From: Natrinema pellirubrum DSM 15624
GTDB taxonomy: Archaea; Halobacteriota; Halobacteria; Halobacteriales; Natrialbaceae
Reading direction: 5' to 3'
Length of the DNA stretch: 64,000 nucleotides
Assembly: GCF_000230735.2 (NCBI RefSeq)
Contig: NC_019962.1
Span: 62,001 to 126,000, forward strand
Shown: positions 28,421-30,767 of the stretch, one piece after another
Layout: every line of letters starts with the position of its first letter
Position numbering within the stretch: the first letter of the stretch is position 1
Made by a program: the position numbers and the translations under genes
Notes under the pieces: model-generated
Told to the model about the DNA's origin: nothing
The model's input: only the letters and a program-made list of their open reading frames with translations
Database searches by the model: none

Positions 28421-28542
28421 GAGTGGCCGTGCGTCCGACAGGCCACCCCGTCTTGATCGTACAAATATTGTGGTATGTATATTCACATCATTGTAGTGGG
28501 AGAAGGTATCAACTTTTATGCTCTCAATCCCTATTCCCGGTG

Positions 28543-29010
<468 letters not shown>

Positions 29011-29128
29011 TCCGTTGCGGGTGCAGTGGGTGTAACCGTACTACAACGGTGACGGTAAGGTACCTCAGCGAACCCGCCACGGCGATCGCTTTGATCGGCT
29101 GTGTTGAATCACCATACGGCGTTGGATT

Positions 29129-30116
29129 TCACTGTTTGACGGCCCGCTTGATGTTATAGACAACACACATCAAGGCGATTTCACGGAACTCTCGATACCA
29201 GGTACGCGCTTGCACGGTGTAGCCGAGCGAGCGCTTGATTGCGGAGTTCACGGTTTCAGTCATTGACCGCTGAGCGTACCGGTCTTCGTCAATACGTGCG
29301 TTGTGTGCGTGATCGTAAGGAGCGAAGATCCGGTGTTTGATCAGCGGACGAATGTCGAGTTCACGGAGCTGTTCGCGGAGCGCTTGCTTATCGTAGCCCT
29401 TGTCAGCGGCAAGTGACTGCAGATCGCCCGCGTTCCGGCGGGCGATCTGCTCACAAAGGTCTGCGTCACTTCCTTCTAACGTCGTCGAGCAGTGAAGATC
29501 GAGAACGGCTTGCGTTGCTGTATCGACGAGTTTTGTGACTTTGATCGTTTGAACGCGGTAATTTGTTCGGTGGCAGCAGTGGCGGCTCGCACGATCACGT
29601 TCGTAGAATGTCGTGTCGACAGCGGCGTGTTCAGAAGAGTTGTGCAACTGCCCGACTGGCGCAGCAGCACTCGACAGACACACATCTCGATCCGGTCAAA
29701 CGCCTTACATAGCGTAGATGGAGCGGGGAAATCGGCCACGTCAAGGCCGATCTCCCCTGCTATTTGCGGCATTTCCTTCAAGAGATCGATCGCCATCCGA
29801 TAGGACGTATCAGAGCGTGTCATAGAATAGTTCTCAGGAGGCGTTGTTCACGGTTTCGCCCTTGAGCAAAACCCATGACTGACGAAATTCATAGGATTAC
29901 ACGCGAATTGGAAGCTGTATAATCGCCAAGTTGAGGGTATGAGACGTATTCTATGACACGCTACGTATCAAGGTAAATCCGGCGACAATGCAGCGAAATG
30001 AGGGCATAGTCGGCGAATCCGCCGCCACCGGTCGGGGTGGCGGATTCGCCTCGTTCACCCGTAACTCTTTGTGCAATCGAGACGCAACGCTCGGTGAAGC
30101 GGGAGGTTTGCGTCAT
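29129..30116 (-). pseudogene. IS5-family DDE transposase, interrupted and frameshifted
   Basis: The original start is ATG at 30116 (MTQTSRFTERCVSIAQRV), running through GGGGFADYALISLHC and YLDT. It is then cut by the MITE and resumes as SYRMAIDLLKEMPQIAGEIG. Deleting the MITE and one target copy rejoins YLDT-SYRM in frame. A second lesion, one base lost in a G run near 29651-29653, shifts the frame after RVLLRQSG, and QLHNSSEHAAVDTTFYERD continues to the stop. The DDE residues are still visible: VDTTF, AADKGYD and TETVNS. The transposase cannot be made intact, so the element is not autonomous. Confidence 0.88.
29805..29970. mobile_element. 149-base MITE nested in the transposase gene
   Basis: AGCGTGTCATAGAATA (29814-29829) and its exact complement TATTCTATGACACGCT (29947-29962) are 16-base terminal inverted repeats. 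The 8-base target ACGTATCA is present on both sides (29805-29812 and 29963-29970), with one extra base at the left junction. The interior has no reading frame of note. It has the structure of a non-autonomous miniature element moved by a transposase encoded elsewhere. Confidence 0.9.
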
Positions 30117-30283
30117 GGACAACCAAATTTTCCCGCTTCAACTCCTTCGATTTACTGACCTTTCCTGACGCCGTCTAGTGATTCAACGCAGCCCTTTGAT
30201 CGGCGCGAGAACCCTTTTGGAACGGCGATAATCCGGATATTGCTCTCGCCGCGGACTCACACGCTGACTGAGGACCTCTCACT

Positions 30284-30696
30284 ATGCGGATATATGGGGT
30301 GAAACTGACCGACAGCTGCGACCGGTCTTCTCGCGGGTTGTCTGGACGAGACGTTCGAGCTGATCGAATTCGAGACGACCGTCGAACTCCGATCGCTGGC
30401 TATGTCCTGGGAGAGTGTCGCGCCGTCTCAGATCGAAGGCGTGGAGAACCCCACCCTCACTCTCCGAAAGGGCGAGAACTACACGATAACGTGGACAGAG
30501 GACGAGCAGGGCGCCCACAACCTCGCGGTCTACGGCGACGGCGAGTCGGCCGGCGTGGGACCGACTGAGGTGTCCAGCGCGAACGACCCGGCCTAAGCCT
30601 CGATTCGAAGCCTCGAGTAATACCGTCGAGTTCGTCTGTGAGCCCCACTACTACATCGGAATGCGGGGCACTATCGAGGTCCGAAGCGGCGAGTGA
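30284..30696 (+). pseudogene. decayed second halocyanin-like cupredoxin
   Basis: Fragments align with the intact halocyanin upstream. The lipobox tail TGLLAGCLDETFELIEFE runs in frame into SWESVAPSQIEGVENPTLTL, which corresponds to the WVGIAPDSIADEENPTLIL stretch of the intact protein, and then into HNLAVYGDGE. The frame is lost near 30590 and resumes as RFEASSNTVEFVCEPHYYIGM (broken here: RFEASSN, then VEFVCEPHYYIGM), ending at TGA 30694-30696. Copper ligands His and Cys-x2-His-x4-Met are preserved across frames. A stop and frameshift also separate the lipobox from the Tat signal remnant. At least two frameshifts make it non-functional. Confidence 0.75.
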
Positions 30697-30767
30697 CACC
30701 GGTGTCGACCGATCATCAAAAGTACCATACTGCCTCGTTCCGCAGTAGCCCGTATCAGGTGATATCC

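What the first reader, a model, noticed from the sequence alone, without database searches (positions are those of the whole stretch)
29089..30201. Nested insertion: a MITE inside an IS5-type transposase, both with exact 8-base target duplications
The IS has inverted ends and CTTTGATC duplicated on both sides. Inside its transposase a 149-base element with 16-base perfect inverted repeats is flanked by ACGTATCA twice. Removing it rejoins YLDT and SYRM in frame, so insertion order is clear: IS first, MITE later. The transposase then also lost one base near 29651.
Basis: seen in the sequence. Interest (0 to 1): 0.75.

Follow-up and report, generated by a model that had tools for sequence, protein, structure and literature searches.

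The report
Nested archaeal MITE with identified helper
A short, gene-less jumping DNA has landed inside a bigger, now-dead jumping gene in a salt-loving archaeon; the genome holds 12 more near-identical copies, and two of them moved together with a neighbouring intact jumping gene, which shows which enzyme most likely drives them.

Summary
Window 29097-30193 is an IS5-family insertion sequence with 26-nt imperfect ends and 8-bp duplications (CTTTGATC). A MITE sits in its transposase gene, and the transposase also lacks one base at 29651/29652. Related IS copies lack the 158-bp insertion and keep the missing base. The MITE is 151 bp, not 149 (29813-29963). The genome (a Natrinema species) holds 13 full copies: ten identical and three sharing one SNP. 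Copies are normally flanked by exact duplications of variable length (5-9 bp). New here: the likely helper is identified. The MITE's terminal ~24 bp match an intact 1,070-bp ISH11-type element present in four identical copies. At one locus that IS and a MITE inserted 15 bp apart, each with its own duplication. The whole 1,244-bp block (IS + 23 bp + MITE) then occurs at two other sites, where only the block, not its parts, is flanked by duplications (ACTTATTA; ACGTCTGCT). So the ISH11-type transposase most likely used one IS end and one MITE end as a transposon. This is a clean natural record, but of a known kind: MITEs mobilised by a resident IS, and composite transposons.

The parts
29089..29096 (.). 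left 8-bp target duplication of the host IS (CTTTGATC)
29097..30193 (-). host IS5-family insertion sequence: 939 bp of IS (with one duplication copy) interrupted by a 158-bp insertion; transposase on the minus strand
   Evidence: 26-nt inverted ends; NF033579 IS5 hit above cut-off and DDE_Tnp_1; aligned relatives
30194..30201 (.). right 8-bp target duplication of the host IS (CTTTGATC)
29129..29683 (-). open frame holding the C-terminal part of the broken transposase (DDE_Tnp_1 domain)
29651..29652 (-). site of the lost base (frameshift) in the transposase
   Evidence: eight of eight related copies have an extra G here
29813..29963 (.). 151-bp MITE (GAGCGTGTCATAGAATA...TATTCTATGACACGCTA)
   Evidence: 13 full copies in the genome with identical borders
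29806..29812 (.). left target duplication of the MITE (CGTATCA; ACGTATCA if the outer A is counted with the target)
   Evidence: empty site in relatives
29964..29970 (.). right target duplication of the MITE (CGTATCA)
29961..30122 (-). N-terminal fragment of the broken transposase upstream of the MITE (53-aa ORF as listed)
   Evidence: continuity with the downstream part shown by intact relatives

Best explanation
A MITE inserted into the transposase gene of an older IS5-family element. The MITE has no protein of its own. It is most likely moved by the transposase of a resident ISH11-type IS (336 aa, DDE_Tnp_1), which recognises the shared terminal ~24 bp (GAGCGTGTCATAGAA...), cuts the target with a variable stagger and so leaves 5-9 bp duplications. 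Shown by sequence: insertion order, empty sites, copy number, shared ends, variable duplications of both elements, and a 1,244-bp IS+MITE block at three sites. Inferred: that this particular transposase (rather than one of the ~79% or ~73% identical ISH11-type subfamilies in the same genome) moved the MITE in trans; that the block moved by transposition, which its own target duplications strongly indicate.
For: 13 full MITE copies: ten identical, three sharing A66G. Five related host-IS copies have the empty site. The 1,070-bp ISH11-type IS has four 100% identical copies with an intact 336-aa transposase and shares end sequence with the MITE (24 bp, 92% at one end, 26 bp, 88% at the other; interior unrelated). 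L005 locus: IS flanked by CACCAGCC and MITE by GTAACAAC, each with its own duplication. L007 and L009: identical 1,244-bp blocks including the 23-bp former flank, with only the outer borders flanked by ACTTATTA and ACGTCTGCT. MITE duplications are 5-9 bp and IS duplications mostly 5-9 bp (one 12 or more), far above the shuffled expectation. Public records call relatives of the IS 'IS5-like element ISH11 / ISHti7 / ISHla6 / ISHma6 family'.
Against: No experiment. The MITE's ends also match two other ISH11-type subfamilies in the genome, which could also have moved solo MITE copies. Copy L006 has no clean duplication, and about a third of related insertions have none, probably from decay or recombination, which was not tested.
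Confidence: 0.9

Rival explanations
1. The MITE is moved in trans mainly by another ISH11-type subfamily of the genome (copies ~79% or ~73% identical to the 1,070-bp IS), and the IS+MITE block is a rare by-product.
For: These subfamilies have more copies and share 15-27 bp of end sequence with the MITE.
Against: The blocks join the MITE specifically to the 1,070-bp type. MITE bp 1-24 match its left end at 92%.
Confidence: 0.3
2. The three 1,244-bp blocks arose by homologous recombination, gene conversion or segmental duplication rather than by transposition.
For: Identical multi-copy IS are recombination substrates.
Against: Flanks beyond the block are unrelated. The block includes 23 bp of the old flank, and each new site has its own 8-9 bp duplication exactly at the outer IS and MITE ends, while the parts have none.
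Confidence: 0.04
3. The 158-bp segment is an ordinary coding part of this transposase or a chance inverted repeat.
For: None found.
Against: Absent from every aligned related IS; 12 other full copies in unrelated places; introduces stops in all three minus-strand frames.
Confidence: 0.01

Closest known systems
ISH11-type IS (IS5 family), e.g. ISH11 of Halobacterium salinarum, ISHti7, ISHla6, ISHma6
   Same: Whole-element DNA similarity (about 73-78% to the helper IS), one DDE_Tnp_1 transposase, GAGSGTGTCATAGAA-type ends. A 1.1-kb ISH11 insertion with a 10-bp direct repeat is reported in H. salinarum (PMC7193027).
   Different: The MITE keeps only the ends. Duplications here are mostly 5-9 bp.
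MITEs of Haloquadratum walsbyi (PMC3119063)
   Same: Short non-coding elements sharing only terminal repeats and target duplication with an IS; often found inside other mobile elements.
   Different: For at least one of those (HqIRS39) no intact helper was found in the genome; here four intact identical candidates exist and three lie joined to a MITE.
MITEAba12 / ISAba12 in Acinetobacter (PMC6382973)
   Same: A 113-bp MITE with ends and duplication length of a coresident IS; identity confined to the ends.
   Different: Unrelated sequence, fixed 9-bp duplication; composite there (Tn6645) carries cargo genes.
TIME-COMP composites of Tn3-derived miniature elements (PMC4133298)
   Same: Miniature elements supply functional ends for a larger unit that transposes and makes target duplications.
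   Different: Those units lie between two miniature elements and lack a transposase; here one end is a full IS with its transposase and the other a MITE.

Membership tests
MITE (miniature inverted-repeat transposable element) | short, non-coding, terminal inverted repeats | tested here: met
   151 bp, 16-bp perfect outer repeats; stops in all three minus-strand frames
MITE (miniature inverted-repeat transposable element) | multiple dispersed near-identical copies | tested here: met
   13 copies, 99-100% identical, on all three contigs
MITE (miniature inverted-repeat transposable element) | target site duplication on insertion | tested here: met
   5-9 bp at most copies
MITE (miniature inverted-repeat transposable element) | ends shared with an autonomous element supplying the transposase | tested here: met
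   ends shared with the resident 1,070-bp ISH11-type IS
IS5 family (host IS, 29097-30193) | IS5-type DDE transposase | tested here: met
   NF033579 165.7 bits against a cut-off of 140; PF01609
IS5 family (host IS, 29097-30193) | inverted ends and target duplication | tested here: met
   26-nt ends and 8 bp here; another copy on C3 flanked by GTATTGAC
ISH11-type IS (helper) | whole-element similarity to named ISH11-type elements | tested here: met
   73-78% identity over 81-86% of the query to records annotated ISH11, ISHti7, ISHla6, ISHma6
IS5 family (helper) | NCBIfam IS5 equivalog cut-off | tested here: inconclusive
   Only below cut-off IS5 and IS1182 hits; IS5 assignment rests on RefSeq names of relatives
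composite transposon | two elements bounding a segment that moves as one unit with its own target duplication | tested here: met
   L007 and L009 blocks
composite transposon | movement demonstrated experimentally | not testable with these tools

The most novel reading that the evidence does not exclude
An intact ISH11-type IS and a MITE that happened to land 15 bp beyond its target duplication have fused into a new self-mobile 1.24-kb element with four usable ends, which has already spread to two further sites; the transposase makes target cuts of variable stagger (5-9 bp, perhaps more).
Probability: 0.85. Interest if true: 0.4.

Novelty: new member of a known kind. Interest (0 to 1): 0.33.

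Why it matters
MITE helpers in archaea are usually inferred from end similarity alone. Here one genome preserves the parental arrangement and two daughter copies of an IS+MITE block, so the MITE's outer end can be read as a working substrate of a named IS. It gives a ready test system for trans-mobilisation and for variable target-duplication length in an IS5-related transposase. The nested insertion itself is ordinary.

Tried and rejected
Rfam found no known RNA family in the region. The MITE folds strongly as RNA (z -4.7 and -7.8); the outer stem is simply the inverted repeat, so no RNA function is claimed. No phage record holds the MITE. A genome-collection scan with a 24-bp MITE end gave two contigs that do not look like full copies of this MITE on inspection. 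No second IS+MITE block was found in 28 congeneric genomes. An empty site for the host IS itself was not found: the flanking genes match separate places in congeners. Literature search by end sequence gave nothing usable. A 9-bp MITE duplication with one mutation was rejected because the outer G is in all 13 copies and absent from empty sites.

Full report
Observation. The window lies in a 4.35-Mb genome of three contigs (G000:C1:62001-126000). Its congeners include Natrinema records with identical coordinates (for example G024 C2:1050211-1050360 and NZ_CP100757.1), so the host is most likely a Natrinema species.

Host IS. The C-terminal frame (29129-29683, minus strand) matches DDE_Tnp_1 and NCBIfam IS5 model NF033579 above its cut-off; the middle part matches the adjacent stretch of the same model. 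A 93%-identical copy on contig C3 reads straight through the insertion point and has an extra G where the window reads ...CTGC-CCGAC.... That C3 copy is itself split by another DDE_Tnp_1 element and flanked by GTATTGAC. Four IS copies in other genomes (L110, L111, L113, L114) also align across the empty site, and all eight relatives tested carry the lost G. IS first, MITE second is thus established; the relative date of the base loss is not.

MITE borders and copies. The own genome has 13 full copies on all three contigs, ten identical and three sharing A66G. All 13 carry G outside the left and A outside the right 16-bp repeat, so the element is 151 bp. Exact duplications then are 7, 8, 6, 6, 8, 8, 7, 6, 5 and 6 bp at ten copies. 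Copy L006 has no clean one, and L007 and L009 have none of their own. Diverged relatives (72-83% identical over full length, shorter matches to 91%) occur in 28 of 149 genomes searched, within the same order, and in 20 plasmid records, all haloarchaeal.

Helper. Weak end matches led to 336- and 332-aa DDE_Tnp_1 transposases in elements of about 1,070 bp. Plasmid records call relatives of this IS ISH11, ISHti7, ISHla6 or ISHma6, IS5-like. MITE and IS share only their terminal ~24-26 bp. The MITE is therefore of the kind that shares ends only.

Composite movement. At L005 the IS is flanked by CACCAGCC and, 15 bp beyond that duplication's end counting to the MITE (7 bp plus GTAACAAC), the MITE is flanked by GTAACAAC. 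At L007 and L009 the same 1,244 bp (IS, 23 bp of old flank, MITE) is identical. There neither IS nor MITE has its own duplication, but the block has ACTTATTA and ACGTCTGCT. A solo IS copy exists elsewhere with its own duplication (L046). L005 is therefore the parent arrangement, and the MITE's right end worked as a transposon end together with the IS end. Among 28 congeners no such block was found.

Variable duplications. Over 55 flank pairs, 35 have an exact duplication of at least 5 bp, against a shuffled mean of 1.1. A published ISH11 insertion had a 10-bp repeat (PMC7193027). The shared spread is a further link between MITE and helper.

Mechanism and status. Shown from sequence: nesting order, copy number, shared ends, block with its own duplications. 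Inferred: enzyme identity and transposition as the cause of the block. This agrees with published views that MITEs use a resident IS transposase in trans (PMC3119063, PMC6382973) and that miniature elements can bound composite units (PMC4133298). Novelty is modest: a new family member with unusually clear evidence for its helper.

Noticed in passing
L003 (G000:C2:259871-260021): A MITE copy with 6-bp duplication TTTATC interrupts a long gene whose upstream part matches BREX PglX (PADLOC PDLC02518, E 9.6e-236) and Eco57I methylase; the insertion (157 bp) shifts the frame, so this defence gene is probably broken.
   Followed up: partly
L011, L012 and L008: Other MITE copies interrupt a phage-integrase-like gene, a gene with an AsnC-type helix-turn-helix, and the end of a carboxymuconolactone-decarboxylase-family gene.
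   Followed up: partly
L102:711-3285 (G000:C3): Second nested insertion: a copy of the same host IS is split by another DDE_Tnp_1 element (444-aa ORF at L102:1030-2364) with an apparent duplication of about 11 bp.
   Followed up: partly
window 28423-29010 and 30402-30699: The IS lies between a gene for a small signal-peptide-like protein that resembles copper-binding halocyanins (my reading; no Pfam hit) and a degraded relative of it; congeners have related genes in other arrangements.
   Followed up: partly
L051, L053 (ISH11-type copies) and L006 (MITE): Full-length copies without matching flanks, possibly from recombination between copies.
   Followed up: no
window 30012-30050: 15-nt inverted repeat (GGCGAATCCGCCGCC / GGTGGCGGATTCGCC) inside the host IS transposase gene.
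   Followed up: no
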